Below, piece after piece: positions 16,691 through 55,949 of a stretch of 59,490 nt of DNA (its first letter is position 1; each line of letters starts with the position of its first letter). The notes below the pieces were generated by a model. It saw only the letters and a program-made list of their open reading frames with translations. It did no database searches and was not told where the DNA came from. A program made the translations under genes and the position numbers. Location: NCBI GenBank assembly GCA_016935615.1, contig JAFGQO010000054.1:1-59490 (forward strand). Direction: 5' to 3'. This DNA is from Bacteroidales bacterium. Lineage in GTDB: Bacteria; Bacteroidota; Bacteroidia; Bacteroidales; UBA10428.

Positions 16691-16822
16691 TGTTTTTTAA
16701 CATTTACCCTATGTTACGGATATAACACTTAGTTGGTTTATAAAACGAAAATAATTCTTTTAATAACTGAAATAATTTTGACAAAGAACAAGTTATAAAC
16801 AGTAAAAGGCCCAATATTATGA

Positions 16823-36216: not shown

Positions 36217-36666
36217 ATGAAGAAGCTTAATCTTCCGGAATATTCGTTTAAGATTACTTCTGAAGACACCAGGTTGTTTATATACGATACTTTCAGAAAA
36301 AAAAAGGTGTTGCTTACTCCGGAGGAATGGGTCAGGCAAAATATCCTGATGTTTCTGGTACGGGAAAAAAAATATCCTGCGTCTCTCATTTCAATTGAAT
36401 CAGGGATCAAAGTCAACCGATTAATGAAACGATATGATGCCCTTGTATATAACCTGCATGGAAATCCGGTGATGTTAATTGAATGTAAAGCTCCCGGGGT
36501 TGGTATCCATCAGGATACATTTGATCAGATATCATCCTATAATCTTTCCGTTACCGCAAAATTTCTTTTGGTAAGCAATGGGATTAAACATTATTGCTGC
36601 AGATTGAATAAAACCGGGAATTCTTACGATTTTCTGGAAGAGATCCCTTTCTTTCATGAATTATGA
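36217..36666 (+). CDS. HSDR_N-type PD-(D/E)xK nuclease-like protein, solitary
   Basis: A 149-aa protein matching the type I restriction enzyme R-subunit N-terminal (HSDR_N_2) family. The nuclease core is RYDALVYNLHGNPVMLIECKAP, with Asp in the first strand and the E-x-K pair in the second; NILMFLVREKKYP is upstream. No helicase, methylase or specificity subunit is nearby, so it is unlikely to act as a restriction enzyme. Proteins of this kind often lie next to holA in Bacteroidota, suggesting a replication or repair role (inference). Its stop overlaps the end of the Wzc gene by 6 nt, tail to tail. Confidence 0.82.
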   Translation: MKKLNLPEYSFKITSEDTRLFIYDTFRKKKVLLTPEEWVRQNILMFLVREKKYPASLISIESGIKVNRLMKRYDALVYNLHGNPVMLIECKAPGVGIHQDTFDQISSYNLSVTAKFLLVSNGIKHYCCRLNKTGNSYDFLEEIPFFHEL

Positions 36667-39877: not shown

Positions 39878-41518
39878 TTACTTATTATGAATTGCTTTGT
39901 ATAAATTTTGCTTTGATCCTGCTTCGTAAGCTACGACAAATGCTTTTCCGGGTATACCATTTCTAAGAGCCATTGCCTGCTGATAATCTGTACCAGCATA
40001 GATCTGGTATTTAAACCATCCTTCCTCTATTATCTCCCTGCAGTTGGGAGAATGCCGGCAAACCGATTTTATTTCATCTTCTGATAATCTTACTTTCGAA
40101 GCCATGACCTGTACATAAAAATCGATTTTATTTTCAATTACACCCCTGCCACGACGTTTAACATCTGCTTCAACAACCCTTGTCATTTCACGTGCTTCCT
40201 GAAGACTGATTGTTATTCCATCATTTGTTGCTATTACCCAGGCATCTCTGACTCCTGAATGGACTGCGATGCGATTTGCATTGGTAAACAGTCTGAATCC
40301 CGTAATGCGATATTTGTACCAGTTTTCTTCTCTGATCACTTCAACGGTTAAATTGCCCGGATATATTGCACGCATCTGAGTTCTGGTAATAGGAATTCTG
40401 CTTGCTGCCAGTTGAACCATAAACCTGACACCTGAAGATTGTGAGGCAGCACTGATGTCAAAGACTTCCCTTGAATGCATACCGACTTCCTTTTCAGAAA
40501 AATCTTCTTTATAAAATGTTTCAGGAATTGTTGTCTCTCCTGCAGGTTCAATGTAATCCTGTGGTATTTCGGCTATCAATGAATCCTTATCTGCAGGAAT
40601 TGTTTCCGGATACACCGGCTCACCATATGTCGCATAAATGTCTCCTGTGGCATGCTGATGCAATATTGTCCTTGCTTCCTCAACAGAAACTTCAGAAACG
40701 CCAACTGCTCCTGCTCTTGTAACCATTATAGGTTCCGGAATAGACTCATCTTCAATATAAGCATCGTATTTCTGAATTACTGCTTGATCTATTGCCAAAT
40801 TCTCACTGATCTGATCAATGTTACTTGATTTATAATCCTCCTGTTCATAGGAATCCTCCTGTTCCTGATCATTGTAATAATCATCTGCAAGCTCTTCCTC
40901 TTGCGGAAGGCTAATAGTCTCACCCGATTGGGCTTTAAAAGCCAATACCATATTTTCAATTGCCGCATTTTCCATCCCGGCTGCATCGTTCAATAATGCA
41001 GCCTTTTCGTAAGGATTGTTCACTCCGGATGCTTCTTTCCTTTTCAGAGAAGCATTGTTCATCATTTCTTCAGCAGCTGTTATGTAACTTTCAGGATCGC
41101 CATAAGTAATTGTATTTGACGCTTCAATGTTTCTCCGGCAGATTTCGTACAGCGATTGATATGCTCCGGAATACAACTTATCAGCTTGCATTTGCGTTGA
41201 GAGAGCCTTACTCTCAGCTTTGGTTATTTCTTTTTGTAATGTCTTTTCATCCAGTTCATAATCAGACTGTAATTCCAGCGCTTCGTTATAATAATTATTC
41301 GCCTCCTGTGTTAATTCGCCTGCCTCTTTTATTTTCTCCAGTTCTTTATCTACAGCATTCTTATCCTTATCAAGGACATAATTATTCAATTCGGAAATTT
41401 CCTGGCCCGAAGATTTTATTGCTAAAATACAAAGGAGTATCAGAAGACAATATTTAGTCACTGTATTAATTATGGATTGAATAAACGATAACAACAACTT
41501 TTCAGAAAAATTTGGCAT
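39878..41518 (-). CDS. Periplasmic protein with two SPOR-like modules
   Basis: A 546-aa exported protein. A hydrophobic N-terminal segment (23-37) is followed by a helical, charged region (40-190, possible coiled coil) and an acidic low-complexity stretch (205-235, rich in Asp/Glu/Tyr/Gln). The C-terminal third has two SPOR-like repeats: residues 364-431 (RFMVQLAASRIPITRTQM, WYKYRITGF) and 465-532 (DFYVQVMASKVRLSEDEI, WFKYQIYAG). SPOR domains bind denuded peptidoglycan. Placed directly before wza/wzc and after the PD40 array, it may tie the export channel to the cell wall (inference). I know no named family for the whole protein. Confidence 0.75.
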   Translation of the reverse strand: MPNFSEKLLLSFIQSIINTVTKYCLLILLCILAIKSSGQEISELNNYVLDKDKNAVDKELEKIKEAGELTQEANNYYNEALELQSDYELDEKTLQKEITKAESKALSTQMQADKLYSGAYQSLYEICRRNIEASNTITYGDPESYITAAEEMMNNASLKRKEASGVNNPYEKAALLNDAAGMENAAIENMVLAFKAQSGETISLPQEEELADDYYNDQEQEDSYEQEDYKSSNIDQISENLAIDQAVIQKYDAYIEDESIPEPIMVTRAGAVGVSEVSVEEARTILHQHATGDIYATYGEPVYPETIPADKDSLIAEIPQDYIEPAGETTIPETFYKEDFSEKEVGMHSREVFDISAASQSSGVRFMVQLAASRIPITRTQMRAIYPGNLTVEVIREENWYKYRITGFRLFTNANRIAVHSGVRDAWVIATNDGITISLQEAREMTRVVEADVKRRGRGVIENKIDFYVQVMASKVRLSEDEIKSVCRHSPNCREIIEEGWFKYQIYAGTDYQQAMALRNGIPGKAFVVAYEAGSKQNLYKAIHNK

Positions 41519-41610: not shown

Positions 41611-42147
41611 TTAATTATCTGTATTAATCAATTGAAGTATTACTTCATCGACATATTCATTGCGGGTAGTTTTTACCCATTCCTTTTTTGTCCCTATTAT
41701 TCTGAATCCGGCCTTTTGAAAAAGGTTAAGACTGGCTGTATTTTCAGATTGTATGTTACAATACAGTTGATGAAGATTAAGTGTTGAAAAAGCATATGCA
41801 ATAATTTCTTTAAGAGCGAGTGAAGCAATTCCTTTGTTCCGGTCTGATTTGCTTCCAATTAAAATACCTATGCCTGCCCTGAGATGGATAGGATTGAAGT
41901 CAAAAAGATCAATAGAACCCACGGTCCGCCATTTTTTATCTTTAAAAATATCTATCATCAACCGCAGTTGTTTCGCCTGGTAGATATCAAGATGTGAATT
42001 GTTAAGGTATTTTCGCAAAATATATCTTGAGAATGGAGTAATTGTGTCACTTATCAGCCAAACCTGTTTATCATTCTCCCATTTGTAAAGCAAATCAATG
42101 TCCTCGGGCTCAAGAGCTCTGAGGTTAATTTTTGTCTGGTTCTTCAT
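41611..42147 (-). CDS. GNAT family N-acetyltransferase (RimJ/RimL-like)
   Basis: A 178-aa acetyltransferase. Marks are LRALEPEDIDLLYKWENDKQVW, the GIGILIGSKSDRNKGIASLALKEI acetyl-CoA loop and the LHQLYCNIQSENTASLNLFQKAGF strand-helix segment near the C-terminus, as in ribosomal-protein and sugar acetyltransferases. It follows the fifth PD40 paralogue with no gap (stop and start abut at 42148/42147). In a polysaccharide locus it could modify a sugar, but no substrate can be read from sequence. Confidence 0.85.
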   Translation of the reverse strand: MKNQTKINLRALEPEDIDLLYKWENDKQVWLISDTITPFSRYILRKYLNNSHLDIYQAKQLRLMIDIFKDKKWRTVGSIDLFDFNPIHLRAGIGILIGSKSDRNKGIASLALKEIIAYAFSTLNLHQLYCNIQSENTASLNLFQKAGFRIIGTKKEWVKTTRNEYVDEVILQLINTDN

Positions 42148-43845
42148 TTATTTTGTACTTTTAATTCCCTGATAATTCTGAATTGTATTTATATTTCTTA
42201 TAAATGCATCAGGATACCCTGATTTTCTTAATTCAAACAACACGACCAAAGCTTCGGAATATACTTTGAATTCTCCGTAAGTATACCGATGCAGACCATC
42301 ATTACCAAGGGATACGGTCAATGGTGAGATCAAGAACAGTTTCTTGCTCTTGTGTTTTTCCAGGGCCATTATCTGTATTGTATAAACAGATACAGTATCA
42401 GCAACAGAATTGTCTTTTTTTGTATCAGAAATAATATCCTTGTTCATTGCCCGATTTTCCGGCGTATACGAACTGTTATGAATAACACCGGCAGAAGTAA
42501 TTTCAGAATCAGATGCAAATGCGACGATTTCACCATATGCCAAATCAGAAAATTTCCCTGTTTGAATTTTATAGATGTCATTTTTCCCAAATCCCTCTGC
42601 CTCATCACGTGAAAAATACCCTGTACCAGTTTCCTTATAATATAAGAAAAATATATCATCACCTGTTGTATTTAAAGGTGTGCCCAGATTAACTGGATTT
42701 TTCCACCCTCCCCTTTCATTTATTTCTGAACACATTATGTCCATGTTGCCAATAGTTTCATGACCATCAGAACTAAAGTATAATCCCGTACCATCAACCG
42801 TTATGAATGGTGCTTCTTCATCTCTTTCCGTATTGATAACAGGCCCTAAATTTACTACATTGCCCCAATCGCTCTCCTCTCTGTTTGCACAATAGATGTC
42901 AAACCCACCTTCTCCTCCCGTTCTGTTGCTGGCAAAATATAAATAGTATCCATCTGAACTTATGCATACACTGGATTCATGAAAACGTGTGTTAATTTTT
43001 GAAGATAAAGGATTCATCGGTTCCCATATGCTGTCATTCATTTTACTGACAAAAATATCATAGTTATTCTGATCATTACAGATCAGATACAATTCTGATC
43101 CATCATAAGATAAAGAAGCTGTGTAGCAGTTCCCATATGAACCAATCTGCTCATTTATTTCCATCGGCTGGGTCCATCCTGAAAGAGTCTTTTTTGTCAT
43201 AACAACTCTATCATAAGATTCCCAAAACTGTGTATATATCATTGTCATCTCATCTCCGCTTAAAACGGGATTGTAGTCTGAAAAACGAGTATTAATATTA
43301 TGCCCCAGGTTTATTATCCTAACCTGTTTCTTCGTTTGTTGAAACTCTTTTGAAATGCCCAATGCAACAATACGATCCTGTATTAATTTGTGTTTTTCCT
43401 TATCAGATTCGGCAATTAATTCTTTGTATTTATGATATGCATAGGAAGCCTCGGACAAATTATTGTCTCTGTGATTTGCATCGCCCAGCAGCAACCATGC
43501 TTCAATAGGGGCTCTGCTATCTTTATACTTTCCTGCAACATATTTCCTGTTTATCTCCAATACGGATTTTTTAAGGTATGGAAGAGCTTTGTGCTGTTCA
43601 CCTATCATATTCATATAGCAATATCCAACCCGATAATTGATATTACAATTGTCAGGATTGTATTCAAGTGATGACAAATAAAAGTTTAAGGCTTCACGAA
43701 ATCTTTTCTGTTCCAGATAAAATTCACCATAAAGAAAGTCTTCTCTCGGATCATTTGTTGCCTGTCCATTTCCTTTGGATATGAAAAACAGAGCAGGTAA
43801 GAAAACTAAAAAACAGTATTTGTTGTATTTTCGAAAAGCTTTCAA
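42148..43845 (-). CDS. TPR-PD40 paralogue 5, with C-terminal SPOR-like domain
   Basis: A 565-aa exported protein. Signal sequence 1-27 is followed by TPR helices (about 30-170, DFLYGEFYLEQKRFREALNFYL, NINYRVGYCYMN). A PD40-type beta-propeller (about 180-430) has repeated marks such as SGDEMTMIYTQ, SSDGYYLYFASNRTGGEGGFDIYCA, YFSSDGHETIGNMDI and NLGTPLNTTGDDIFFLYY. The tail (about 484-553, VYTIQIMALEKHKSKK, HRYTYGEFKVYSEA) is SPOR-like, so this head is joined to a peptidoglycan-binding tail. No ATG start exists; the frame has a stop seven codons upstream and must open with TTG at 43845. It is the last of five tandem paralogues. Confidence 0.82.
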   Translation of the reverse strand: MKAFRKYNKYCFLVFLPALFFISKGNGQATNDPREDFLYGEFYLEQKRFREALNFYLSSLEYNPDNCNINYRVGYCYMNMIGEQHKALPYLKKSVLEINRKYVAGKYKDSRAPIEAWLLLGDANHRDNNLSEASYAYHKYKELIAESDKEKHKLIQDRIVALGISKEFQQTKKQVRIINLGHNINTRFSDYNPVLSGDEMTMIYTQFWESYDRVVMTKKTLSGWTQPMEINEQIGSYGNCYTASLSYDGSELYLICNDQNNYDIFVSKMNDSIWEPMNPLSSKINTRFHESSVCISSDGYYLYFASNRTGGEGGFDIYCANREESDWGNVVNLGPVINTERDEEAPFITVDGTGLYFSSDGHETIGNMDIMCSEINERGGWKNPVNLGTPLNTTGDDIFFLYYKETGTGYFSRDEAEGFGKNDIYKIQTGKFSDLAYGEIVAFASDSEITSAGVIHNSSYTPENRAMNKDIISDTKKDNSVADTVSVYTIQIMALEKHKSKKLFLISPLTVSLGNDGLHRYTYGEFKVYSEALVVLFELRKSGYPDAFIRNINTIQNYQGIKSTK

Positions 43846-43872
43846 TTTTGTAATTAATGCTTCACCGAATGT

Positions 43873-45189
43873 TTACCTGGATTCCTCAAAATTTAAAATT
43901 GTATTTTCTTTTATTCTGATCAGAAAAATATCTGTTTCTCCGGACCCTTCAACATCTTCTGTTGCGTAATATCCTTCCCGAAGTTTATCAGACGGACAAT
44001 AAAAAAGGTTGTTTCGCGTATCATTTATCGGATACCCAATATTCACAGGGATTGTCCATTTTTTCCCATTCTTTTTGCTGTAGAATATATCATACCCTCC
44101 CATATTGTAGTGCCCTTCAGATGAAAAAAACAGAACATTCGGAGAAGAAAAATCATAGGCACATTGTTCATTGAACTCAGTATTTATGGATTTACCAAGA
44201 TTCTTAGGCTTACTCCATATTCCCTTCGATGTTAGCTTTGATTGAAAAATATCATACCCTCCCTTACTTTTTGATCGGTTGCTCGAAATATATATTTCAT
44301 TGCCGTCCCTGTTAAAACTTGCATGAATATCGGACGATGCTGAATTTATATCAGCCAAAGCCACTGCCTTTGACCATGTTCCTCCTTCTAAAAAAGAAAT
44401 GTATATATTTTCCGTACCTGCTTCTTTTTTTACAAGTAAAAGTTGTTTTCCATCGTATGATAATCCGGTAGGATAGAATTCACCATCTGATAAGATCTCA
44501 GGATTAATATTTACTGCTTTTCGCCATTTTTCTTTTTCCCGGATTGAATAAAAAACTGCGTCATAAAATTTAAGGCGTCTGATAAAAACAAGAGTCTGTC
44601 CATCACCGGAAACTACAGGCCTTTCTTCAACAAAATCACTGTTAATGGCATCTCCAAGATTAACTTTTTCATAATCGAGGGGTGCATCCTGAATTATTTT
44701 TGCTCTTTCGCATGATTTTATTTCATTCTCAACAATATTCTGATTGTAGTTTCCCCAGAAATAAGGTGAATCAATAAATTTCTCATAACTTTCCAACGCT
44801 TTGTCCAGTTGATTGTTTATTCTATAGGCATTCCCAAGATAAAAATATGCATGCAACGGAGCATTCGTCTCATCCTGTGATCTTTTTTTGTACTTGTTTT
44901 TTGGCACAATTTTTTTAATGGCTTTCTCAAAATACGGAATAGCAAGATGTTCCTTTGAAGGTATATTCAGATAACATTCCCCGACCTTAAAATTATAATT
45001 GGAATTCAAAGAATCGATGGCCAATAGTTTCAGATAATAAATTACGGCGTCCTTATAATCTCCGCGGTTGAAAAAATATTCCCCATCCTTAAAATTTTCA
45101 GCAATTGGCTTATTATCCTGGCACAGTGAATCCGGAAAATCAACGCATAATACAAACAATATCACCAGATAAAAGAATGACTTTTTCAT
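43873..45189 (-). CDS. TPR-PD40 paralogue 4, no C-terminal anchor
   Basis: A 438-aa exported protein with the shared head only. A signal peptide (1-25) is followed by TPR helices (GEYFFNRGDYKDAVIYYLKLL, NFKVGECYLNIPSKEHLAIPYFEKA) and a PD40 propeller (SGDGQTLVFIRRLKFYDAVFY, SFNRDGNEIYISSNRSKSKGGYDIFQ, FFSSEGHYNMGGYDIFYS, NIGYPINDTRNNLFYC). It stops about 30 residues after the last blade with no OmpA, SPOR or membrane tail. It starts at ATG 45189, since the upstream alternative is a TTG. It probably acts as a free or partner-bound subunit (inference). Confidence 0.82.
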   Translation of the reverse strand: MKKSFFYLVILFVLCVDFPDSLCQDNKPIAENFKDGEYFFNRGDYKDAVIYYLKLLAIDSLNSNYNFKVGECYLNIPSKEHLAIPYFEKAIKKIVPKNKYKKRSQDETNAPLHAYFYLGNAYRINNQLDKALESYEKFIDSPYFWGNYNQNIVENEIKSCERAKIIQDAPLDYEKVNLGDAINSDFVEERPVVSGDGQTLVFIRRLKFYDAVFYSIREKEKWRKAVNINPEILSDGEFYPTGLSYDGKQLLLVKKEAGTENIYISFLEGGTWSKAVALADINSASSDIHASFNRDGNEIYISSNRSKSKGGYDIFQSKLTSKGIWSKPKNLGKSINTEFNEQCAYDFSSPNVLFFSSEGHYNMGGYDIFYSKKNGKKWTIPVNIGYPINDTRNNLFYCPSDKLREGYYATEDVEGSGETDIFLIRIKENTILNFEESR

Positions 45190-45309
45190 AGATTGCAAAA
45201 TTGGTTGTTTCAAAAATAATAAAAAGGGTACTTACATGTAGCTCAATTTATTAAGTGTTCACTTTGAAGTTAAGTTCGTATTCAAAAACAGGACGGATCC
45301 TTCACAATA

Positions 45310-47154
45310 TTAATGTACCTTCAGATGGTCAGGGACAGGATCAATGCGCTTGATAATTATCACATTTTTATCAATGCCTAAAACTTCAAATTCGACTCTG
45401 CGGTTGTATTTTCGACCTTCACTATTATCAGATCCGTCAGAATGTGTATTTACAGCAATAAAATCAACTTCTCCTTTCTCTATTGGTTTCAATCTTCCCG
45501 CATCAATACCTTGTTCAATCAAATAGTTCATCACGGCCAGAGCTCTTTTTTTTGCCAGTTTGAGATTGTATTCGGCAGGTCCTAACGGATCAGTATATCC
45601 AAGCAATTCAACATATACATCTTCATTTGATTTAAGAAGACCAATCAATGGTTTTATATCACTTTTACCCGTTTCAGACAAAATGTACTTGTCAAATCCA
45701 AACAAAACAGGTGAGATAACAATTGTTTTTATTTCAGAAACCTCAACGGGTTCCTTTTCTTCAACCTCTGTGCTATCGGTTATGTCAACCGGAGACTTTG
45801 TAAGGATCTCCACCAGGTTTTGTGCTTCTGTTGTTTCAGGTTGTTCTGCAATACTTTCCTCAACCTCAACCGGATATACAACCTGATAAATATCTGTAGC
45901 TCCATGCCCTTCTTCCATAATTTTTGCCATATAGGCTATTTCCCCGTTATTCCAAGGAAAATAGAATAAATCATCATCTGTTGTATTGATAGGATAACCA
46001 AGATTCTGAGGCATCGACCATTCTTTTTCGCTAATACGCTCAGATTTGAAAATATCATAACCCCCCATGCCTCTGAATCCCTGAGAACTAAAATACAGGA
46101 TTTTTTCATCCTCTGTGATAAACGGAGTATCCTCATTAAGTTTTGAGTTTATTGTTTCTCCTATATTGACGGCTGGTCCCCATTTGCCTTCATCATTGAG
46201 ATGGGCTATGTAGATATCCATTTCTCCTTTGTTCCCTTTTCTGTTGCTTGTAAAATAAAGTGTTTCTCCATCTTTGGAAACAGAAGCATGTGATTCCCAA
46301 TATTTAGTATTAATATTGGCACCCAGAGGAACAGATTTGGTCCACCTGTTATCCATGTAATAACTAACATATATATCGCTATTGAAAGCGTCTTCCCTGG
46401 AAAGAAACAGCATTTTCCCGTCAAAAGAAATCGAAGTGACAAACTGATCCCCATCTGACATCAATTGAGGTGTGATATTCTCAGGTTCAGACCATTTGTT
46501 ATCAATTTTTTTTGAAAAATATACGGCATTATAAAATGGAAGCTTATGCATATATACAAGAGTTGTCCCGTCACCTGATACAACAGCCTTAAAGTTCTCA
46601 TTTCCCTGATTGATAGTTGTTCCCAGATTAATAAATTCAACCTCTACCGGTTCCTTCATAAATTCAATGGCAATATTGGAAGCTTCAATTTGTTGATTAG
46701 CATACTCATGCAGATTGGTTTCCTCTTCAGGCAATAATTCTTTGTATTTATTGTAGGAATTGATTGCTTCTTTAAGCCTGTTATTAACACGATAGGCATT
46801 GCCCAGATATAAATAAACATCAATAGGTGCATTTTTTTCTTTGAGGCTTGATTCGCGATATTTGGGTGAAACAGATTCTTTTGCCTTTTCCAGGTATTCA
46901 ATTGCTTTGTTTTTTTGTCCTGCAATATTCAAATAACATATTCCTATTCTATAGTTAATATTCGCATTATTCTTATACCCTCTTCTGTAAACTTGCAGGT
47001 AATCATTAAGTGCATCGGCATAAAACTCCTGAGTAAGAAAGAATTCAGCATCAGAGAAATATTCCTTTAATGCAATTTCACTTTCACTGCGTTGAGCATA
47101 AGATGATACCAGATTAACAAGGCAACAAAGAAATGTTAAGATAAGCTTATTCAT
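45310..47154 (-). CDS. TPR-PD40 paralogue 3, with OmpA-like peptidoglycan-binding domain
   Basis: A 614-aa exported protein with PorE-like design. A signal peptide (1-20) is followed by TPR helices (about 25-165), a PD40 propeller (about 175-430: SGDGTTLVYMHKLPFYNAVYF, SKDGETLYFTSNRKGNKGEMDIY, YFSSQGFRGMGGYDIFKS) and an acidic linker (430-480, many Glu/Thr). The OmpA domain (about 482-592) has GYTDPLGPAEYNLKLAKKRA with the conserved Asp and Arg that grip diaminopimelate, and GRKYNRRVEFEV. PorE of the T9SS joins the same three parts. The gene is one of five tandem paralogues in an envelope operon. Confidence 0.87.
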   Translation of the reverse strand: MNKLILTFLCCLVNLVSSYAQRSESEIALKEYFSDAEFFLTQEFYADALNDYLQVYRRGYKNNANINYRIGICYLNIAGQKNKAIEYLEKAKESVSPKYRESSLKEKNAPIDVYLYLGNAYRVNNRLKEAINSYNKYKELLPEEETNLHEYANQQIEASNIAIEFMKEPVEVEFINLGTTINQGNENFKAVVSGDGTTLVYMHKLPFYNAVYFSKKIDNKWSEPENITPQLMSDGDQFVTSISFDGKMLFLSREDAFNSDIYVSYYMDNRWTKSVPLGANINTKYWESHASVSKDGETLYFTSNRKGNKGEMDIYIAHLNDEGKWGPAVNIGETINSKLNEDTPFITEDEKILYFSSQGFRGMGGYDIFKSERISEKEWSMPQNLGYPINTTDDDLFYFPWNNGEIAYMAKIMEEGHGATDIYQVVYPVEVEESIAEQPETTEAQNLVEILTKSPVDITDSTEVEEKEPVEVSEIKTIVISPVLFGFDKYILSETGKSDIKPLIGLLKSNEDVYVELLGYTDPLGPAEYNLKLAKKRALAVMNYLIEQGIDAGRLKPIEKGEVDFIAVNTHSDGSDNSEGRKYNRRVEFEVLGIDKNVIIIKRIDPVPDHLKVH

Positions 47155-47171
47155 CAGGATTGCTTTTTATT

Positions 47172-47229
47172 CAAATTTAAGTCAATAACATGAGAAAAAC
47201 AGATTACAGTATCAACAATCTTAATCTGT
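47172..47229 (-). other. AT-rich hairpin and -7-like box between paralogues 2 and 3
   Basis: Read on the minus strand, an 8-bp perfect stem (47222-47229 with 47199-47206, 15-nt loop) is followed by five T, like a weak terminator. Next comes TAAATTTG (47179-47172), a full -7 box, 18 nt before the start of paralogue 3. Together they could end part of the upstream transcript and start a new one. The -33 box is weak (TCTG at 20-nt spacing). Confidence 0.3.
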
Positions 47230-47290
47230 AATAAAGCAAGTTTAAATTAATAAAAAAATGGAATATTCTAAAGGAGTGCTGCTCAGTTAA

Positions 47291-49309
47291 TTATTTCTGT
47301 TTCTGAATGAAAGCCTCAGGAATTTCAATCTCTATTAAAAATAGTACACCTGAAATTTCATATATTGGTTCTATTTCAACCCTTCTGTTATATCGTCTTC
47401 CTTCCGGACAATCTGTCCCGTCAGCATTTGTATTCATCGCTATGGGATTTGATTCGCCTTTGGCAACGATCTTAAATCTCTCCTTGGCAACAGAATTTGA
47501 ACTAAGGTAATTGACTATTTTTTCAGCACGAAGTTTCGATAATTTTAGGTTGTAGCTATCGCTGCCCACAGCGTCAGTATAGCCAATAATTTGAAAAGTT
47601 ATTGAATCATATTTCTCCATCCAGTTTCTTAATTCATCAAGAAAAATCTTGCTTTCTTCAGAAATCTTATAACTATCGAATCCGAAAAGAATATGTTTCA
47701 AGCGTAATGTATCTCTTGCAATGCCCTCTGCTACAAGACTATCAACAGGCAATGATGCCTGAATACTTGTTACCAGCTCCTTATCTGTATCCCCTTCATT
47801 GAAGACAATAGTACCTTCACTGGATTTTCCGCTGTTATCAATAACCGAAACTGAAAATGAGCCTGCAGGTAATAAAAATTCATAACTGCCATCAGGATTT
47901 GGACTTGTTTGTATCAGCGTATCAGAAGTTTCGCTGTTAATAACCAAAACTTGCTGATCTTTATAATTTGTGCTGTCTGTTGTTTCAGATCTGCCTCTAA
48001 GTGTAAATCGAGGTGAGTTTGCAAATACCATGCTATTGTAACGGTAAATATCATACAAAGTATTGCCTGGTTTCTCGAGACGTGACATCAAACCGGAAAC
48101 ACCTTCTTCAAGTGGAAAATAAAATAAGTCATCATCTGTGGTAGATACCGGTGAACCCATATTGATCGGTTGACGCCATTCGTTTTTTCCTTTACGCTGT
48201 GCACGGAAAATATCATAACCTCCCATATTTAAATGGCCCTGTGAACTAAAATAAAGTATTTCATTGTCAACATTCATGATTGGATTCTCTTCATTAAACG
48301 GAGTATTAATCGTTGATCCAAGGTTGACAGCGGGCCCCCAGTCACCATTCTCATCAATTTCAGACATATAAATATCCAAGCCTCCATAACCTTCCGGTCG
48401 GTTACTGGTAAAATACAGGGTCTTACCATCAGCAGAAAAGCTGGCATGAGTTTCGTGATATTTTGTGTTTATATTCTTATTCAGCGACTCCAGCCCGGAC
48501 CATCCATCTTCAGTTAATCTGGTGGTATATATTTCACCAGCTTTTAATACTTCATACAAATACAATAACAACTGGCTGCCATCAGAAGAAGCACCAACAA
48601 GAATATGATCTCCATCACTGCCAATCTTAGGAGTCAGGTTATTCGGTATTCCCCATCCTTCATCCTCCATTTGAACCTGCATAAGAGCATCATAAAACTT
48701 CAATTCTTCCATATAGTATAGAACACTGTCATGCCTAACCAACACAGGATTATAGTTCGAGAATTCATCGTTGATCTGCCCTGGTAATTTCTCTGTTCTT
48801 GGTTCACCCGGAAATGCTGCAAGCAAAATAGCATTTTCACATCGTCTTATGTGCATATCAATAATTGCATCCATTTCCAGATCATTGTTTGCCAATGTAT
48901 CTCGTAACGATTCAAAAATCTTTATTGCTTTTTTAGGTTCATTGTTGATGCGATAGGCAATTCCGAGCATCATAATAGCTTTCAACGGCGCTTTTGTTTC
49001 TTCGATTGAATTTTGATAATTAAATGTTATATTCTGACAAGCATTTTCCAGATAAGAAATGGATTTATCCTTCTGCCCCCGGATGTTCAAATAACATATC
49101 CCTATTTTATAGGAGATATTAGAATTTATAATCTCTTTTTTTTCCAATAGCATATAGAGGGGCAGAGCTTCAACATACTCTTCCGCATCAAGATATTCTT
49201 CAGCATCGTCATATATATCCTTATTTGACAGCCATATCTGGCAAAAGATATAAGTCCCAAAAGACATTTGAAATAACAGTATTAGAATTAAACGTAAGAT
49301 ATATTTCAT
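47291..49309 (-). CDS. TPR-PD40 paralogue 2, with beta-sandwich insert and OmpA-like domain
   Basis: A 672-aa exported protein. A signal peptide (1-24) is followed by TPR helices (about 35-165), a PD40 propeller (about 180-420: SSDGSQLLLYLYEVL, SADGKTLYFTSNRPEGYGGLDIYMS, YFSSQGHLNMGGYDIFRAQ, NMGSPVSTTDDDLFYF) and a small carboxypeptidase-regulatory-like sandwich (about 435-525, PDGSYEFLLPAGSFSVSVIDNSG). The OmpA domain (about 545-650) has GYTDAVGSDSYNLKLSKLRAEKI and GRRYNRRVEIEP. All PG-binding residues of the OmpA motif are present. The C-terminus runs past the OmpA domain by a short hydrophobic stretch (ISGVLFLIEIEI). It starts 9 nt after paralogue 1 ends. Confidence 0.87.
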   Translation of the reverse strand: MKYILRLILILLFQMSFGTYIFCQIWLSNKDIYDDAEEYLDAEEYVEALPLYMLLEKKEIINSNISYKIGICYLNIRGQKDKSISYLENACQNITFNYQNSIEETKAPLKAIMMLGIAYRINNEPKKAIKIFESLRDTLANNDLEMDAIIDMHIRRCENAILLAAFPGEPRTEKLPGQINDEFSNYNPVLVRHDSVLYYMEELKFYDALMQVQMEDEGWGIPNNLTPKIGSDGDHILVGASSDGSQLLLYLYEVLKAGEIYTTRLTEDGWSGLESLNKNINTKYHETHASFSADGKTLYFTSNRPEGYGGLDIYMSEIDENGDWGPAVNLGSTINTPFNEENPIMNVDNEILYFSSQGHLNMGGYDIFRAQRKGKNEWRQPINMGSPVSTTDDDLFYFPLEEGVSGLMSRLEKPGNTLYDIYRYNSMVFANSPRFTLRGRSETTDSTNYKDQQVLVINSETSDTLIQTSPNPDGSYEFLLPAGSFSVSVIDNSGKSSEGTIVFNEGDTDKELVTSIQASLPVDSLVAEGIARDTLRLKHILFGFDSYKISEESKIFLDELRNWMEKYDSITFQIIGYTDAVGSDSYNLKLSKLRAEKIVNYLSSNSVAKERFKIVAKGESNPIAMNTNADGTDCPEGRRYNRRVEIEPIYEISGVLFLIEIEIPEAFIQKQK

Positions 49310-49318
49310 ATCATTCTA

Positions 49319-52300
49319 CTATTTTTTCCGTTTCAGGGTTAACAGAATAATAACTATCAATATTACAACATTTACAAAAACTATGGCTGTCAGGAATTTT
49401 TTATTCCTCCAGATACTTATTCCTTTGTTTTTATCTTTCATTCTCAACCTTTCTGACAACCCACGTTCCAATATCATTCTAATAAGCAGGTTGTTAATGT
49501 CTGATTCTGTAAAGTGATAATCCTGTGCAACAACAAGCAGATATTGCAACAGCTCAAAAGGATTAGAGAAATATTTCAACGATGTATCTGCAAGTGCATC
49601 ATTGATTGATTTGATATTATAGGACTTAATCTTTTCAGAAAACTTATTGATGTCAGTAATGCCAATCAGGTCCAGCAACAAATTGTACACTTCTTCTCTG
49701 GAATAATTCCTGTACTGAGATTGTTCCACAAGAAATTTCAACAAATTCTCGTAGGTATTGATTTGACTTTCATCAAGATTCAGTAATAAAAGCTGGGATT
49801 TTAAGGTGCCACTTGCGTTATTGGTCAGTACTTCATTGAATATATTAAGATAATATTTTCTGTTTAATGATACCTTCTCAAGAGTTTTGATGAGTTCTTC
49901 GTATGTAAAGTTTTCATTCTCAACTGCACCAAACAAATGATTCAATAAATCAACAGAATTATGAATAGCCAATGATTCAATCTGTAACTGAGCCAGATGA
50001 TTTTTTAATTCTCCCGAGGATGCTATCAATACGTTCTGGAAGAAGAATTGCAGATCTTCAGTAGTAGATGCAAGCTGCAATATAGAATTCGCATCCTGAT
50101 CTCCTATATTGTCAGTAAAAAGTTCCCAGGTCCGAACCGATCCGGAAATATCAAAATCCCCGGCATAAAATTCTGTTGTATCTTTCCGGAAACTTGACAG
50201 ATAAGCGTATAATGAATTTCCATCAACAAAATCATTGGTCAGCAATTCAAGCAAAACTTTCTGTAGATCTATCTTCGAAATAAGATTGTTATTTACCAGA
50301 GTCTTAATATAAATCAAGGGAATTGAAGAAGAGTCAAGAGCGGCTTCCCATACTGAATCCTGGTCAGCATATACAGCTTTGAATTCCAAATCGAACATAT
50401 CTTTGTCTTTTTGAGAAAAATAGACGGAAAACAACCTGTTCACATCATCTGTGGTAAATCCTTCCTTATCGGAAACCTCGATCAGGTGAAGGTAGAATTG
50501 GGAATAACTATCAAAATCATCCATTTCAATCTTTCTCAGATATTTTTGGAGTGTACCTTCAGAGATCATATCAAATGATTTTATATAAACAGATGCTCCC
50601 GGTACAATTTCTTCCAGCTTTTTTTCTTCCTCGACTGCCAAAGGCAAATAATAGGTAATGCTAACAAGAGTTGAGGAAACACCTCCTTCAGGATCAGTAG
50701 CTGTGAACTCCAGCAGGTTCTCTCCGGGCTTAGGTTTATAGAAATATGTAAATCTTTTTCTTACAGATTCGACAGACTCTGTGAAAATGAGACTATCATT
50801 TAACAAAATCCGGATATCCAGATCAGCTCCTTTCGGAACAATCAGATCAATGGGAATTATGCTTGAATCTGTTACAGCATAAAAATCACTTTTGGTTTTA
50901 ATTTTTGTTTTTGCAGCAGTTGGAATCGGCGGACTGATAGCAGACGATTTTTCCAGCACAATCTCAGGAATGATGACAAGAGACTCGGGTTGATTGACAG
51001 TCAAATCGATGTTTTGTTGAAATGTTTCAGTTTCCGGACCTTCAATGAATAAGATATATTCTCCCTGAGACATGGAAAGAAAGAGCGTACCGTCATCTTC
51101 AACTTTCGTTTCACTGACTATTTCCTTTGTATTCGCATTGAGTATTGTCGCTTTCAGCTTTCGGCAGTATTTGGGATCTGCATCATCAGTTATAATTTTT
51201 CCCTGCACATGGAATGTTCTCGGTATGTATTTGTTATAAACTTCAACTTCATAAATATCAAGCATTCCCTCTGTATTGTTTTCATCAAATAGTGCCATAA
51301 AACCAAAAGAGTTCACTCCCATCGGACAATAGAATAAATCATCTCCAGTAGTATTTAAAGGAGAACCCATATTTCTGGGCTTACTCCAGGTACCATCACT
51401 TTGTAAATTGCTAATAAAAATATCGTATCCTCCAATTGTATTATGATCCTGAGAACTAAAAAACAAAGTATATCCTTCATTAGAGACAAATGGCGTTTCT
51501 TCGTTGTTTGGTGAATTAATAACCGGGCCAAGGTTTACTGCCGGCTCCCAGTCTCCTTTTGGATTGCGCTTTGATTTGTAAATATCGAGACCACCGTATC
51601 CACCTGAGCGGTTCGAAGTGAAGTAAAGATAATCTCCGTCAACTGAAGGTGATGCATGTGATTCCCAATATTTTGTATTGATATTGTCATTCAGTTTGAT
51701 CAAAGAACCCCATCTTTCTCCTTCCATCTTGCTGGAGTATATATTCCCATCAAAATTATCGCTCCTGTATACGAAAATCTCATCTCCAAAATAGGATATT
51801 CCACAGGAGTATGAATTTCCGTCCAGGCCAAAATCAGGTGTAAGGTTTTCAGGTTCAGACCATGTGCCATCACTATTTTTCCTGCTGATAAAAACACCAT
51901 CATAGAATTGAAGTTTTCTTGTGAATATCAGTGTATTCCCATCACCTGAAACCACAGGATTAATTTCTTCAAACCTTGTATTGATAGGATTCCGAACATT
52001 CACCGGTGAAAAATAAACCGGCTCCTGCAACATTTTTTTTGCTAACTGACACGCATCAATATCCTCATCAACAATTGTCAAATTAAATTCTGCAGGATCA
52101 GCAAGTTCTCTGAATCGACGATAATTTTCTATCGCTTTGTCCAGCATATTGTTTATATGATATGCTCTTCCAAGATAATAATATGCTTCAAGCGGAGCCT
52201 TCTTCTCCCTGTAATTGTTTTGTCGGTAATCCATAGATATGTTCTGTGAAGCTTTTTCCAGATATTGAATTGACTTGGCGGTAAGGTAAACATCGTTAAG

Positions 52301-52519
52301 ATAACATATGCCAATTTTATACTGAACATTATAATTCTCCGGTTCAACCCGAAATATCTGCTGGTATAATGGTAAAGCATCCTTGTATTCCTCAAATAGA
52401 AAATAAGATTCTGCTTCAATAAATAATTTCTTAGGATTTGTTTCTTCCTGAGCGGATAATTTCAAACAGAAAAGCAACAGAAAAATCAAGAGAGATGGAA
52501 ACGAATTATAAATTCTCAT
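49319..52519 (-). CDS. TPR-PD40 paralogue 1, with helical-repeat region and C-terminal membrane helix
   Basis: A 1066-aa exported protein, the largest of the five. Order: signal peptide 1-22, TPR helices 30-160, PD40 propeller 170-425 (SPSVDGDYLYFTSNRSGGYGGLDIY, FFSSQDHNTIGGYDIFIS), carboxypeptidase-regulatory-like sandwich 434-515, Ig-like sandwich 550-625, then about 400 residues of predicted helices (640-1035) with a recurring motif F/Y-T/S-x-x-[DE]-[VLI] followed by Leu (688, 871, 939, 1003). It ends with a membrane helix 1042-1062 and the basic tail LKRKK. The C-terminus is thus likely cytoplasmic-facing and the head periplasmic, unlike its OmpA/SPOR siblings. I know no family for the helical region. 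Confidence 0.82.
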   Translation of the reverse strand: MRIYNSFPSLLIFLLLFCLKLSAQEETNPKKLFIEAESYFLFEEYKDALPLYQQIFRVEPENYNVQYKIGICYLNDVYLTAKSIQYLEKASQNISMDYRQNNYREKKAPLEAYYYLGRAYHINNMLDKAIENYRRFRELADPAEFNLTIVDEDIDACQLAKKMLQEPVYFSPVNVRNPINTRFEEINPVVSGDGNTLIFTRKLQFYDGVFISRKNSDGTWSEPENLTPDFGLDGNSYSCGISYFGDEIFVYRSDNFDGNIYSSKMEGERWGSLIKLNDNINTKYWESHASPSVDGDYLYFTSNRSGGYGGLDIYKSKRNPKGDWEPAVNLGPVINSPNNEETPFVSNEGYTLFFSSQDHNTIGGYDIFISNLQSDGTWSKPRNMGSPLNTTGDDLFYCPMGVNSFGFMALFDENNTEGMLDIYEVEVYNKYIPRTFHVQGKIITDDADPKYCRKLKATILNANTKEIVSETKVEDDGTLFLSMSQGEYILFIEGPETETFQQNIDLTVNQPESLVIIPEIVLEKSSAISPPIPTAAKTKIKTKSDFYAVTDSSIIPIDLIVPKGADLDIRILLNDSLIFTESVESVRKRFTYFYKPKPGENLLEFTATDPEGGVSSTLVSITYYLPLAVEEEKKLEEIVPGASVYIKSFDMISEGTLQKYLRKIEMDDFDSYSQFYLHLIEVSDKEGFTTDDVNRLFSVYFSQKDKDMFDLEFKAVYADQDSVWEAALDSSSIPLIYIKTLVNNNLISKIDLQKVLLELLTNDFVDGNSLYAYLSSFRKDTTEFYAGDFDISGSVRTWELFTDNIGDQDANSILQLASTTEDLQFFFQNVLIASSGELKNHLAQLQIESLAIHNSVDLLNHLFGAVENENFTYEELIKTLEKVSLNRKYYLNIFNEVLTNNASGTLKSQLLLLNLDESQINTYENLLKFLVEQSQYRNYSREEVYNLLLDLIGITDINKFSEKIKSYNIKSINDALADTSLKYFSNPFELLQYLLVVAQDYHFTESDINNLLIRMILERGLSERLRMKDKNKGISIWRNKKFLTAIVFVNVVILIVIILLTLKRKK

Positions 52520-52617: not shown

Positions 52618-52649
52618 CTGTTTTTTAAGGTAAAAGACTTAAAAAACAG
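52618..52649 (-). other. AT-rich 11-bp perfect inverted repeat over the E2 stop codon
   Basis: Arms 52618-52628 and 52639-52649 (ctgttttttaa/ttaaaaaacag) with a 10-nt loop; the second arm includes the stop codon of the E2 gene. It lacks a T tract after it on the minus strand, so it is not a standard terminator, but it could stabilise the transcript end or slow polymerase before the PD40 array. Confidence 0.4.
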
Positions 52650-53985
52650 GTAATTCTTCCGATAAATACCTCCCTATAGTATGTACAAACACACCTCCCA
52701 GTGAACCATCAATAACCCTGTGATCATAGGTTAGAGATAAAACAAGAATATCTCTGATCCCTATTGCATTGCTCCCGTCAATTAAAACAACTCCGGGTTT
52801 TTTCTTAATTGCCCCTGCCGCTAATATAGCCACTTCAGGCTGATTTATTATCGGTGTACCGGAAATATTATCATATCTCCCCATATTTGTTATTGTAAAT
52901 GTGCCTCCTTTTATTTCGGCAGGCAACAATTTGTTTTTCCTTGCTCTGTCTGAAAGATCATAGACTTGCCTGGATATGCTTATAAAATTACATTTGTCAG
53001 CATCCTTAATTACCGGCACAATAAGGTTGCCATCAGGCAATGCAGTAGCAATCCCAATATTTATATATTTTTTTCTGACAATATAGTCGCCGGCAACAGA
53101 AACATTTATTCCGGGAAAATCCTTTAACGCTTTTACTGTTGCTAAAACGATTATGGGTGTATAAGTCAGTTTCACTCCATGCTTTTTATAAAAATCCTCT
53201 TTTTTTATCTCTCTCCAATCCACCAAAGATGTAACATCAATTTCAACAGTTGATGTAACATGCGGAGAAATACGCTTGGAGCGTACCATGTGCTCGGCAA
53301 TTAATTTTCTGGTACGATCCATTTCAATCAATTCTTCTCCCGGCTGTAAAATGTAACTGTTTTTCAGGCTCTCTTTTCCGGTATTCAGATTTTGATTACC
53401 GTATATCTCTTTGTCATACTCATTCCTGAATCTTCTTCCAGACTGAATGTATGAATTTAAATCCTCCTTTGTTATTCTTCCCCCCAGTCCGGTACCTCTG
53501 ATATGCTGTAATTCGTTAAAAGAGATGCCTCTGTTTTTGGCAAAATATCGTACATAGGGAGTAATAAGGTCCCCACTTGCAGATTGTTTTGCTGTAAAAG
53601 GTTTTTGAGAGCCGGATGATTTTTTTTCTTTAATTCTCGCCCCTGTATCAATCTCCTTTTTTATATTTTTGGAAGCTGGTCTTTCAGATAGATCAGATTT
53701 TTCTTCATCATCCCTATCCGCCGGAATTGCTCCCTTTTTTTCAACTTCACTTTCAATAATTGCCAATACTTCCCCAACCTTTGGAATTTCTCCTTCCCGG
53801 TAAATAATTCTGGATATCACTCCGGATGCCGGCGAAGGTATTTCGGAATCAACTTTGTCAGTAGCCACCTCCAACAAAGGATCATCTGCCTGAATAAACT
53901 CACCGACACCAACAAACCATCTTGTTATTGCAGCTTCTATTATCCCCTCACCCATTGCCGGTAATATAACCTCTGTTTTACTCAT
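52639..53985 (-). CDS. Dihydrolipoamide acyltransferase (E2) family protein
   Basis: Lipoyl-dependent acyltransferase of the 2-oxo acid dehydrogenase type. The 448-aa protein has an N-terminal lipoyl domain with lipoylation site Lys44 (EVATDKVDSEIP), a charged linker (80-135), an E3/E1-binding domain (about 136-180, TPYVRYFAKNRGISFNEL, GTGLGGRITKEDL) and a catalytic domain with His422 and Asp426 (YDHRVIDGSLGG). No E1 or E3 gene lies in the window, so it is an orphan here. It sits 5 nt after the glycosyltransferase-fusion gene and before the PD40 array, an unusual place for a central-metabolism gene. Confidence 0.93.
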   Translation of the reverse strand: MSKTEVILPAMGEGIIEAAITRWFVGVGEFIQADDPLLEVATDKVDSEIPSPASGVISRIIYREGEIPKVGEVLAIIESEVEKKGAIPADRDDEEKSDLSERPASKNIKKEIDTGARIKEKKSSGSQKPFTAKQSASGDLITPYVRYFAKNRGISFNELQHIRGTGLGGRITKEDLNSYIQSGRRFRNEYDKEIYGNQNLNTGKESLKNSYILQPGEELIEMDRTRKLIAEHMVRSKRISPHVTSTVEIDVTSLVDWREIKKEDFYKKHGVKLTYTPIIVLATVKALKDFPGINVSVAGDYIVRKKYINIGIATALPDGNLIVPVIKDADKCNFISISRQVYDLSDRARKNKLLPAEIKGGTFTITNMGRYDNISGTPIINQPEVAILAAGAIKKKPGVVLIDGSNAIGIRDILVLSLTYDHRVIDGSLGGVFVHTIGRYLSEELPVF

Positions 53986-53990
53986 TGCAT

Positions 53991-55949
53991 TTATCTGCCT
54001 AAATATCTGAAATCCCTGAAAATAATAGATATGTCAGTACTCATCTTATAATCTTTTGCATATAACAAGTTCATACGCTTAATAGTTTCACTATTTATTT
54101 TTTTATTCCTTGATCCGGGTATTGGAGTTAGAATACCCTTGTTTAGTTTTGGTAGTGTGCCGATCTCAGCTTCATTATCCGGATAAAATCCTATCCATGT
54201 TCTGAAACCTGTCAGAGTCAGAAAAATATTTCTGATCAACCCTAATGGATTCCTGACAATGAATAATGCAACCGGTAAGATTAGTAATAAAATCAACGCC
54301 ACCAGGATATCAAACAGCCTTTTTGTTCTTTGTGCAAAGCCCTGGCTAAGAGAATTAAAATGTACTATATACAATTCACCGGCTGTATTAATGGAATTGC
54401 TGCCAATAATTGAAAGACTTTCGGGTGGAGCAATTTTATAGTCTATTGAAGGATCGCTAATGCTTAACATTGTTTGAATGATTTTGTGTGAAGGAATATC
54501 CTTCGCACAAAAAACAATTTCATCAATCCGGTTTATTTTGACAATTTCATTCAATTGCGAGAGATCACCTATGTACGATTCGCTATTGCCCTTGCCGTTA
54601 ATCCCTGCAATGCCTACCAGATTTGGAACAATATTGGTCTGTTTCATGATGGAAAATACACGATTACTCTCTTTCAATGAACCTGCAATAATAATTCTTT
54701 TCTTTTGTCTGCTTAACGACAGGTTTACAGTATGAAACAGTTTTCCAACAGTGATCCGGGTTAAAAAAACCGACACTGTTGCCCAAACAGTACCCAACAA
54801 TAAGAGAGCCCTTGAATACCTTAAGCTTTCAGGAAGAAGAGCATAGATGATAAACAGGGCAATTGTTCCCATCGAAATACCCTTCAGCAAGTCAACAATT
54901 CGTGTTCGCTTTTCATAAGCCCCGGCAATAAATAAAAAGAAAAACCACAACAAAATATATGCCGGTACAACATATTTAAGGTACTCTTCCGGATAATAAT
55001 TGTCCATTCCAAACTTAATTTTTTCCCAAAATGGTTCAAAAAAATAAAATCCGAAATAAATAAAAAATGCATCGGACAGAGGTACAATTGCTTTTAAAAA
55101 AAATCTTCTGAATATGGATAAAGACGCCCGTAAATAAATTGCCAGATTAATCAGGGCACTGAACAGAAAAGCATTTTTTGCAGAAAAATGTTTTTTGGCG
55201 AAAATAATCATTGCTTTATAAAAAACCATTACGTAATTGATGCTTCCCTTTTTTGTGCTTTCCCCTTTGTAGTGGATAATAGTAGTTTCAGGAAAGTAAT
55301 AATTGTTATACCCTGCAAGAATGATTCTGTATGACAAGTCAATATCTTCGCCATACATAAAAAATGCTTCATCAAGATATCCTGTCTTGTCCAAAACATT
55401 TTTCCTGATAAACATAAATGCACCCGGTAAAATCTCAATTTTACTGATCTTGTTATTATCGAGATATCCAAGATGGTATTTCCCAAATAATTTTGATCTG
55501 GGGAAAAGTCTGGACAATCCGAATATTTTAAAAAATGAAACCAATGGGGTGGGTAATGCCCTTTTGGATTCGGGAAGGAAATTTCCTTTGCCGTCAATCA
55601 TTTTCACTCCGAGTCCTCCTGCATCGGAATGATTATCCATAAAAGATATACATTTCGAGAATGTATCTTCCTGTACAATCGTATCAGGATTAAGCATCAA
55701 CAGATATTTCCCTTTTGCAATAGCCAATCCCTGATTATTCGCTTTGGAAAAACCATAATTCTTTTTATTCTCAACCAGAATAACTTCAGGGAATTTTTCT
55801 CTGATCATCTGGCAGGAGCCATCAACAGAATTATTATCAACAACAATAATTTCACAATGAATACCTTCAATGGATTTGTAAACCGAATGAAGACATTGCT
55901 CAAGAAAATACTTGACATTATAATTTACTATAATTACCGAAAGATCCAT
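53991..55949 (-). CDS. Fusion of family 2 glycosyltransferase and degenerate sugar-phosphate transferase
   Basis: A 652-aa membrane enzyme. Residues 1-240 are a GT2 glycosyltransferase: SVIIVNYNVKYFLEQCL, VVDNNSVDGS, the YLLMLNPDT metal site and FFMYGEDIDLSYRI. Several membrane helices follow (about 250-410). Residues 413-538 look like the CoA-binding-like Rossmann domain of polyprenyl glycosyl-1-phosphate transferases (RIIIAGS at 418-424, EIVFCAKDIPS). The tail has the membrane-entry motif KRLFDILVALILLLILPVA (543-561) and the closing YAKDYKMSTDISIIF (630-644), but lacks the catalytic KFRSM-type segment between. It probably adds sugars in exopolysaccharide assembly, with the second half non-catalytic (inference). 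Confidence 0.82.
   Translation of the reverse strand: MDLSVIIVNYNVKYFLEQCLHSVYKSIEGIHCEIIVVDNNSVDGSCQMIREKFPEVILVENKKNYGFSKANNQGLAIAKGKYLLMLNPDTIVQEDTFSKCISFMDNHSDAGGLGVKMIDGKGNFLPESKRALPTPLVSFFKIFGLSRLFPRSKLFGKYHLGYLDNNKISKIEILPGAFMFIRKNVLDKTGYLDEAFFMYGEDIDLSYRIILAGYNNYYFPETTIIHYKGESTKKGSINYVMVFYKAMIIFAKKHFSAKNAFLFSALINLAIYLRASLSIFRRFFLKAIVPLSDAFFIYFGFYFFEPFWEKIKFGMDNYYPEEYLKYVVPAYILLWFFFLFIAGAYEKRTRIVDLLKGISMGTIALFIIYALLPESLRYSRALLLLGTVWATVSVFLTRITVGKLFHTVNLSLSRQKKRIIIAGSLKESNRVFSIMKQTNIVPNLVGIAGINGKGNSESYIGDLSQLNEIVKINRIDEIVFCAKDIPSHKIIQTMLSISDPSIDYKIAPPESLSIIGSNSINTAGELYIVHFNSLSQGFAQRTKRLFDILVALILLLILPVALFIVRNPLGLIRNIFLTLTGFRTWIGFYPDNEAEIGTLPKLNKGILTPIPGSRNKKINSETIKRMNLLYAKDYKMSTDISIIFRDFRYLGR

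What the first reader, a model, noticed from the sequence alone, without database searches (positions are those of the whole stretch)
42148..52519. Five tandem TPR-PD40 paralogues sharing a head but carrying different C-terminal anchors
Five adjacent co-directional genes encode secreted proteins with the same N-terminal TPR plus PD40 propeller. The shared marks are a SNRxGxxGxxDIY blade turn, YFSSxGxxxxGGYDIF and NxGxPxNTTxDDLFY. Their tails differ: helical repeats plus a C-terminal membrane helix; sandwich plus OmpA; OmpA; none; SPOR. OmpA and SPOR both bind peptidoglycan and a C-terminal membrane helix fits the inner membrane, so the set could form a scaffold across the envelope. PorE of the T9SS joins the same TPR, propeller and OmpA parts, but five diversified copies in a row beside wza/wzc is not an arrangement I know. 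This is my best candidate for an undescribed system.
Basis: partly seen in the sequence, partly recalled or inferred. Interest (0 to 1): 0.8.

Follow-up and report, generated by a model that had tools for sequence, protein, structure and literature searches.

The report
Conserved propeller-protein array spanning the periplasm
Many Bacteroidales bacteria carry a row of sister genes for periplasmic proteins that share one propeller-shaped head but end in different anchors (one in the inner membrane on a stalk of variable length, others on the cell wall), an old, coordinated gene set that is probably an undescribed envelope tether.

Summary
Confirmed: five adjacent genes (42148-52519, minus strand) encode exported TPR + PD40-propeller proteins with different tails. 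I found 72 distinct arrays of 1-6 heads ending at the same GNAT gene. Of 67 multi-gene arrays, 52 have exactly one member with a C-terminal membrane helix, none has two, and it is never the OmpA member; 61 carry OmpA on another member. Head phylogeny follows tail type, so these are ancient specialised paralogues. The membrane member carries 0-12 copies of an undescribed helical repeat, forming a confidently predicted solenoid without a PDB match. Corrections: none of the five is PorE (109-193 bits against a cut-off of 600). Almost none carries a lipobox, so inner-membrane and peptidoglycan anchoring is supported but not outer-membrane anchoring. wza/wzc adjacency is confined to this family and a few relatives (13 of 50 arrays); the lasting neighbours are GT2/E2 genes and GNAT. 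Best reading (inferred): a Tol-Pal-like set in which TolB-like heads tie the inner membrane to peptidoglycan. No interaction or phenotype was tested.

The parts
49319..52519 (-). T1, 1066 aa: signal segment, TPR (res. ~29-164), PD40 propeller (~169-428), two Ig-like domains (~435-623), helical-repeat solenoid (~642-1019), C-terminal TM (~1040-1062), cytoplasmic KRKK
   Evidence: orthologue in nearly all family genomes
49463..50602 (-). T1 helical-repeat stalk: about 24 helices, 4 repeat units recognised; undescribed repeat, 0-12 copies in relatives
   Evidence: AF2 pLDDT 86.5, pTM 0.82; no PDB or viral fold match at E<=0.001; no consistent Pfam family; repeat counts
49334..49402 (-). T1 C-terminal transmembrane helix, followed by the basic tail
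   Evidence: hydrophobic helix plus basic tail in T1 relatives throughout; no C-terminal sorting family above cut-off
47291..49309 (-). T2, 672 aa: TPR + PD40 + Ig-like + OmpA peptidoglycan-binding domain
   Evidence: OmpA 2.8e-18; Asp579 and Arg594 of the OmpA motif invariant in 18 aligned sequences
45310..47154 (-). T3, 614 aa: TPR + PD40 + OmpA
   Evidence: OmpA 2.6e-15; Asp522 and Arg537 invariant in 19 aligned sequences
43873..45213 (-). T4, 446 aa: TPR + PD40, no tail
   Evidence: tailless clade of 14 rows, SH-aLRT 100
42148..43845 (-). T5, 565 aa: TPR + PD40 + SPOR-like C-terminal domain; optional member
   Evidence: present in a minority of the family's loci
41611..42147 (-). GNAT acetyltransferase: the constant downstream neighbour of the array, often overlapping or abutting it; also present in genomes without the array
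39878..41518 (-). Exported protein with two C-terminal SPOR-like stretches; optional, together with Wza/Wzc
   Evidence: SPOR in 10 of 13 members, best 2.4e-6; window member itself below threshold
39079..39858 (-). Wza-like polysaccharide export lipoprotein (Poly_export + SLBB); optional neighbour
36661..39063 (-). Wzc-like tyrosine autokinase; optional neighbour
52639..53985 (-). 2-oxoacid dehydrogenase E2: frequent upstream neighbour of the array
53991..55949 (-). GT2 glycosyltransferase fused to a polyprenyl-glycosylphosphotransferase-like membrane part: next upstream neighbour

Best explanation
The five genes are the local version of an old Bacteroidales gene set of specialised PorE-like (TPR + TolB-like propeller) periplasmic proteins that act together as an inner-membrane-to-peptidoglycan tether. 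SHOWN: shared heads, tails sorted by clade, one and only one inner-membrane-type member per typical array, OmpA on other members, conserved order between the GT2/E2 genes and the GNAT gene. INFERRED: T1 sits in the inner membrane through its C-terminal helix and holds its propeller head out into the periplasm on a helical stalk whose repeat number sets the reach; T2 and T3 hold equivalent heads on peptidoglycan through OmpA domains; T4 is a soluble head that links or caps; T5, where present, would add a SPOR contact to glycan-denuded (septal) peptidoglycan. The homologous heads bind each other, directly or through a common partner, and so couple inner membrane and cell wall, stabilising the envelope or positioning an envelope machine.
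For: Recurrence: 72 distinct arrays ending at GNAT, in at least 18 families of the order. Division of anchors: exactly one TM member in 52 of 67 multi-gene arrays (shuffled mean 26.8, maximum 40), none with two; TM and OmpA never in one protein (about 20 expected by chance); TM gene first in 46 (14 expected). TM-bearing heads form one side of a branch (19 rows including L161, SH-aLRT 87, unstarred), T4 clade 100, T3 clade 99; tail labels need 13 changes against 46.5 shuffled. Array members kept when the locus has split: E2-T1 in one place and others with GNAT elsewhere (L099/L243; L118/L245; L122/L246). Peptidoglycan-binding Asp and Arg invariant in T2 and T3. Repeats in 66 of 80 TM members, 0 of 145 OmpA members, 0 of 8 unlinked homologues. 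Propeller fold matches TolB and the TolB/Pal complex.
Against: No interaction, localisation or phenotype is shown. 15 of 67 arrays lack a recognisable TM member and 6 lack recognised OmpA. The counted loci share ancestry, so shuffles overstate significance, and the sample was gathered mainly by head similarity. The full-length T1 model has pTM 0.48, so domain placement is unknown. Only 4 of 40 loci chosen by GNAT have the array next to it, so the system is dispensable in much of the order. Conserved synteny alone can reflect slow rearrangement.
Confidence: 0.5

Rival explanations
1. The set is a lineage-specific elaboration of the T9SS accessory protein PorE: the heads dock on T9SS outer-membrane parts (PorP/SprF, the Sov translocon) and the array serves particular T9SS cargo.
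For: PorE in P. gingivalis is needed for T9SS and is recovered with Sov (PMC5053529, PMC8754138). The window genome has SprA, a true PorE and T9SS cargo. In L118 and L122 a PorP/SprF-like gene plus a giant PKD protein lie right behind T1.
Against: A separate true PorE is present in the window genome (675.9 bits) and the five members score 109-193 against a cut-off of 600. PorE homologues described so far end in OmpA; an inner-membrane-anchored one is not in the papers I read. SprA is in 233 of 247 order genomes, so co-occurrence cannot discriminate.
Confidence: 0.22
2. The array is a scaffold for polysaccharide export, organising the Wza-Wzc trans-envelope complex.
For: In this family SPOR2-Wza-Wzc often lies directly downstream, and T5-type members were seen only in loci with SPOR2-Wza-Wzc wherever the contig reaches far enough. 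A GT2 gene with a glycosylphosphotransferase-like part lies upstream.
Against: Wza is downstream in only 13 of 50 arrays with room, nearly all in this family. Family members such as L028, L029 and L031 keep T1, T3 and T4 without it. The GT2 or E2 genes also sit there when the array is absent (L208, L224, L233, L242).
Confidence: 0.12
3. T1's C-terminal helix is not a permanent anchor but a sorting or release signal cut by the nearby rhomboid protease (34508-35125), so the heads act as free periplasmic or surface proteins.
For: The rhomboid resembles rhombosortase (43.3 bits, below the cut-off of 84) and travels with the locus; helix plus basic tail is the general shape of C-terminal sorting signals.
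Against: No GlyGly-CTERM match and no constant motif before the helix among relatives; an inner-membrane helix with a basic cytoplasmic tail needs no processing. Some array loci show no rhomboid nearby.
Confidence: 0.06
4. Merely a tandem duplication of PorE-like genes kept by drift, without joint function.
For: PorE homologues are often multiple (2-13 per species, PMC5053529).
Against: Head clades match tail types across families, the order is conserved, anchors are mutually exclusive, and members persist after the locus splits.
Confidence: 0.04

Closest known systems
PorE (PG1058), T9SS-associated TPR-WD40-CRD-OmpA lipoprotein, NCBIfam NF052230
   Same: Same head order (TPR then PD40 propeller), Ig/CRD-like domain and, in T2/T3, the OmpA peptidoglycan-binding end
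   Different: Scores 109-193 bits against a cut-off of 600; no lipobox; multi-gene array; T1 has an inner-membrane anchor on a helical stalk; a separate true PorE exists in the genome
CHU_0125, Pal-like TPR-PD40-OmpA protein of Cytophaga hutchinsonii, NCBIfam NF053607
   Same: Same domains as T2/T3; deletion of chu_0125 causes hypersensitivity and about 6-fold more vesicles (PMC5891637)
   Different: Members score 137-202 bits against a cut-off of 620; a single described protein, no array, no inner-membrane partner
Tol-Pal system (TolB propeller, Pal OmpA-like, CpoB TPR, TolA inner-membrane transducer)
   Same: TolB is among the best propeller fold matches; the heads combine CpoB-like TPR and TolB-like propeller, as proposed for PorE (PMC12204202), with Pal-like OmpA ends and one inner-membrane member
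   Different: No TolA or TolQR-like gene in the locus; the propeller is repeated in every member; the inner-membrane member is a predicted type I protein with a helical solenoid
Wza-Wzc polysaccharide export
   Same: Adjacent in this genome
   Different: Neighbour mainly in one lineage; not part of the conserved core

Membership tests
PorE (NF052230) | Whole-protein score above the curated cut-off (600 bits) | tested here: not met
   108.8-192.7 bits for the five; 675.9 for the separate gene on contig C91
PorE (NF052230) | TPR + PD40 propeller head | tested here: met
PorE (NF052230) | C-terminal OmpA peptidoglycan-binding domain | tested here: inconclusive
   Met by T2 and T3, not by T1, T4, T5
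PorE (NF052230) | N-terminal lipidation (outer-membrane lipoprotein, as in P. gingivalis) | tested here: not met
   No lipobox in the five; 2 of 249 array members have one. The genome's own true PorE also lacks one by the same simple pattern
PorE (NF052230) | Required for T9SS secretion | not testable with these tools
   needs mutants
CHU_0125 family (NF053607) | Score above the curated cut-off (620 bits) | tested here: not met
   137-202 bits
Tol-Pal | TolB-type propeller fold | tested here: met
   TolB structures among the top fold matches, E about 1e-6, TM-score by target about 0.4-0.46
Tol-Pal | TolB family score above cut-off (343 bits) | tested here: not met
   22-25 bits for T3 and T4, no hit listed for the others
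Tol-Pal | Pal-like OmpA domain with peptidoglycan-binding Asp/Arg | tested here: met
   T2, T3
Tol-Pal | TolQRA motor encoded with the set | tested here: not met
   No such gene among the neighbours scanned
Wza-Wzc export machinery | Constant co-location with the array | tested here: not met
   13 of 50 arrays

The most novel reading that the evidence does not exclude
A new trans-periplasmic tether of Bacteroidales, a 'distributed Tol-Pal': paralogous TolB-like propellers anchored separately in the inner membrane and on peptidoglycan bind one another, and the number of helical repeats in the inner-membrane member works as a ruler that sets or tracks the inner-membrane-to-wall distance.
Probability: 0.25. 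Interest if true: 0.8.

Novelty: new variant of a known kind. Interest (0 to 1): 0.6.

Why it matters
How Bacteroidota couple inner membrane, wall and outer membrane is poorly known; PorE was recently proposed to be a compact Tol-Pal-like tether (PMC12204202), but with no inner-membrane partner identified. This locus offers genetically linked, co-inherited candidates, including an inner-membrane-anchored sister of PorE on a variable-length helical stalk of undescribed repeat. It makes the question testable by a handful of deletions and pull-downs, and it gives a gene order and a logic to proteins otherwise annotated as scattered 'PD40/OmpA' genes.

Tried and rejected
Chance tandem duplication: rejected. 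PorE or CHU_0125 membership: rejected on curated scores. wza/wzc as a defining partner: rejected. GNAT as a functional subunit: not supported, since 205 of 247 order genomes have it and most sampled loci lack the array beside it; the array looks like a cassette that can be missing between GT2/E2 and GNAT. T9SS co-occurrence: uninformative because SprA is nearly universal in the sample. GlyGly-type sorting signal on T1: no match. Phage origin of the T1 tail: no match. Known fold for the stalk: no PDB match at E<=0.001 and none in the viral library; AlphaFold DB was not available. Forcing all array heads into one clade against the unlinked homologues (one very long branch, L048, left out) is not rejected (p-AU 0.905), but this does not prove monophyly. 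Two queries failed for frame or coordinates.

Full report
WHAT IS THERE. The five ORFs exist at the stated coordinates, all on the minus strand. In transcription order I call them T1 (1066 aa), T2 (672), T3 (614), T4 (446) and T5 (565), followed by GNAT, a double-SPOR-like protein (SPOR2), Wza and Wzc. Pfam finds PD40 and TPR in all five, OmpA in T2 and T3, and a sub-threshold SPOR in T5; relatives of T5 and SPOR2 match SPOR better (4 of 8, best 2.3e-9; 10 of 13, best 2.4e-6). The other four heads are 39-46% identical to T3.

NOT PorE. In the window's own genome the other TPR-PD40 homologues lie on other contigs and match T3 at E 1e-42 or weaker, against 1e-87 to 1e-107 within the array. One of them, on C91, is a true PorE (675.9 bits, cut-off 600). 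The five array members score only 109-193 for PorE and 137-202 for CHU_0125 (cut-off 620). So the array is related to, but distinct from, both named families.

RECURRENCE. The T1 tail is found in nearly every genome of the window's family searched, in about a dozen further families of the order with strong scores, and not convincingly in a sample of the rest of the phylum. Record titles place the relatives in Bacteroidales. Neighbourhoods in the family show GT2 - E2 - [array] - GNAT - (SPOR2 - Wza - Wzc) - HolA - rhomboid, with T1, T2, T3, T4 in the same order and each best matching its own positional counterpart. In other families the array has 1-6 members, again usually ending at GNAT. After removing duplicates there are 72 arrays ending at GNAT with the upstream gene visible; the median gap to GNAT is 6 nt.

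DIVISION OF ANCHORS. Of 67 arrays with two or more heads, 52 have exactly one member with a C-terminal membrane helix by hydrophobicity (50 if a net basic tail is also demanded), none has two, and it is first in 46. No protein has both TM and OmpA although about 20 would be expected by chance, and 61 arrays have OmpA on another member. These loci share ancestry, so the shuffles are descriptive, not strict tests.

HISTORY. In a tree of 94 heads the TM-type members fall on one side of a branch (19 rows, SH-aLRT 87, unstarred), T4-type tailless members form a clade (14 rows, 100) and T3-type members another (16 rows, 99); the four labels need 13 changes against a shuffled mean of 46.5. The unlinked homologues fall outside except one very long branch. 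Heads and tails have therefore been inherited together since before these families split. In two lineages the locus is split, with E2-T1 in one place and other members with GNAT elsewhere, yet the members are kept. That argues for a functional link beyond synteny.

THE STALK. T1's tail holds two Ig-like domains and a helical region. Folded alone, the helical region gives a confident solenoid (pLDDT 86.5, pTM 0.82) with no PDB or viral match at E<=0.001 and no consistent Pfam family. A repeat model seeded from two units finds 0-12 copies in TM-type members (66 of 80 have at least one), none in 145 OmpA members, none in 8 unlinked homologues and some in 6 of 137 others; copy number grows with protein length, from 573 to 1494 aa. 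The helix is followed by a basic tail in T1 relatives, which with an N-terminal signal predicts a type I inner-membrane protein with its head in the periplasm (established topology rule, not tested here). The full-length model has pTM 0.48, so its overall shape is not reliable.

WHAT IT IS NOT TIED TO. Wza follows in 13 of 50 arrays with enough downstream sequence, 12 with SPOR2, nearly all in this family. GNAT is in 205 of 247 order genomes, and in 40 loci chosen by GNAT alone only 4 had the array; several have E2 or GT2 before GNAT with no array, i.e. an apparent empty site. So GNAT, E2 and GT2 are landmarks rather than proven partners. SprA is in 233 of 247 genomes, so T9SS co-occurrence cannot be judged. 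Only 2 of 249 array members have a lipobox by a simple pattern, so the evidence covers inner membrane and peptidoglycan but not the outer membrane.

MECHANISM. The propeller's best PDB matches include TolB and TolB/Pal. PorE has been proposed to be a CpoB-TolB-Pal fusion acting as an outer-membrane-to-peptidoglycan tether (PMC12204202), and loss of CHU_0125 damages the outer membrane (PMC5891637). I infer that the array is a related but distributed device: equivalent heads are held from the inner membrane (T1) and from peptidoglycan (T2, T3), with a free head (T4) and sometimes a SPOR-tailed one (T5), and meet in the periplasm. The head-head contact is the untested step. The PG1058 paper notes 2-13 homologues per species and N- and C-terminal extensions (PMC5053529), and another counts fourteen in Tannerella forsythia (PMC7192894). 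None of the papers I found describes the tandem set or the inner-membrane member, but only open-licence papers were searchable.

VERDICT. A real, conserved, apparently undescribed gene set built from a known protein kind; interesting because it supplies an inner-membrane partner for PorE-like tethers. Function remains inferred.

Noticed in passing
window 15728-22327: A PorP/SprF gene beside a 1834-aa PKD-repeat protein with a CHU_C T9SS sorting domain: a likely type B cargo and anchor pair. In L118 and L122 a similar pair sits right behind the T1 gene.
   Followed up: partly
window 22509-27440: 1643-aa protein with a Por_Secre_tail T9SS sorting domain, on the plus strand.
   Followed up: no
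window 34508-35125: Rhomboid resembling rhombosortase (43.3 bits, below the cut-off of 84), found close to the array in many loci; no GlyGly-CTERM match on T1.
   Followed up: partly
L208, L224, L233, L242: Loci where E2 or GT2 is followed directly (or after one small ORF) by GNAT with no propeller array: apparent empty sites.
   Followed up: partly
L022 13016-15424: A second T5-type gene lies after GNAT, so GNAT is enclosed by two array members.
   Followed up: no
L034, L037 (one 3.5 Mb contig): T1 is split into two pieces about 2.7 Mb apart in this genome: a rearrangement or an assembly error.
   Followed up: no
window 39878-41518: Exported double-SPOR-like protein travelling with Wza-Wzc; T5-type members were seen only in loci that also carry it, wherever the contig is long enough.
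   Followed up: partly
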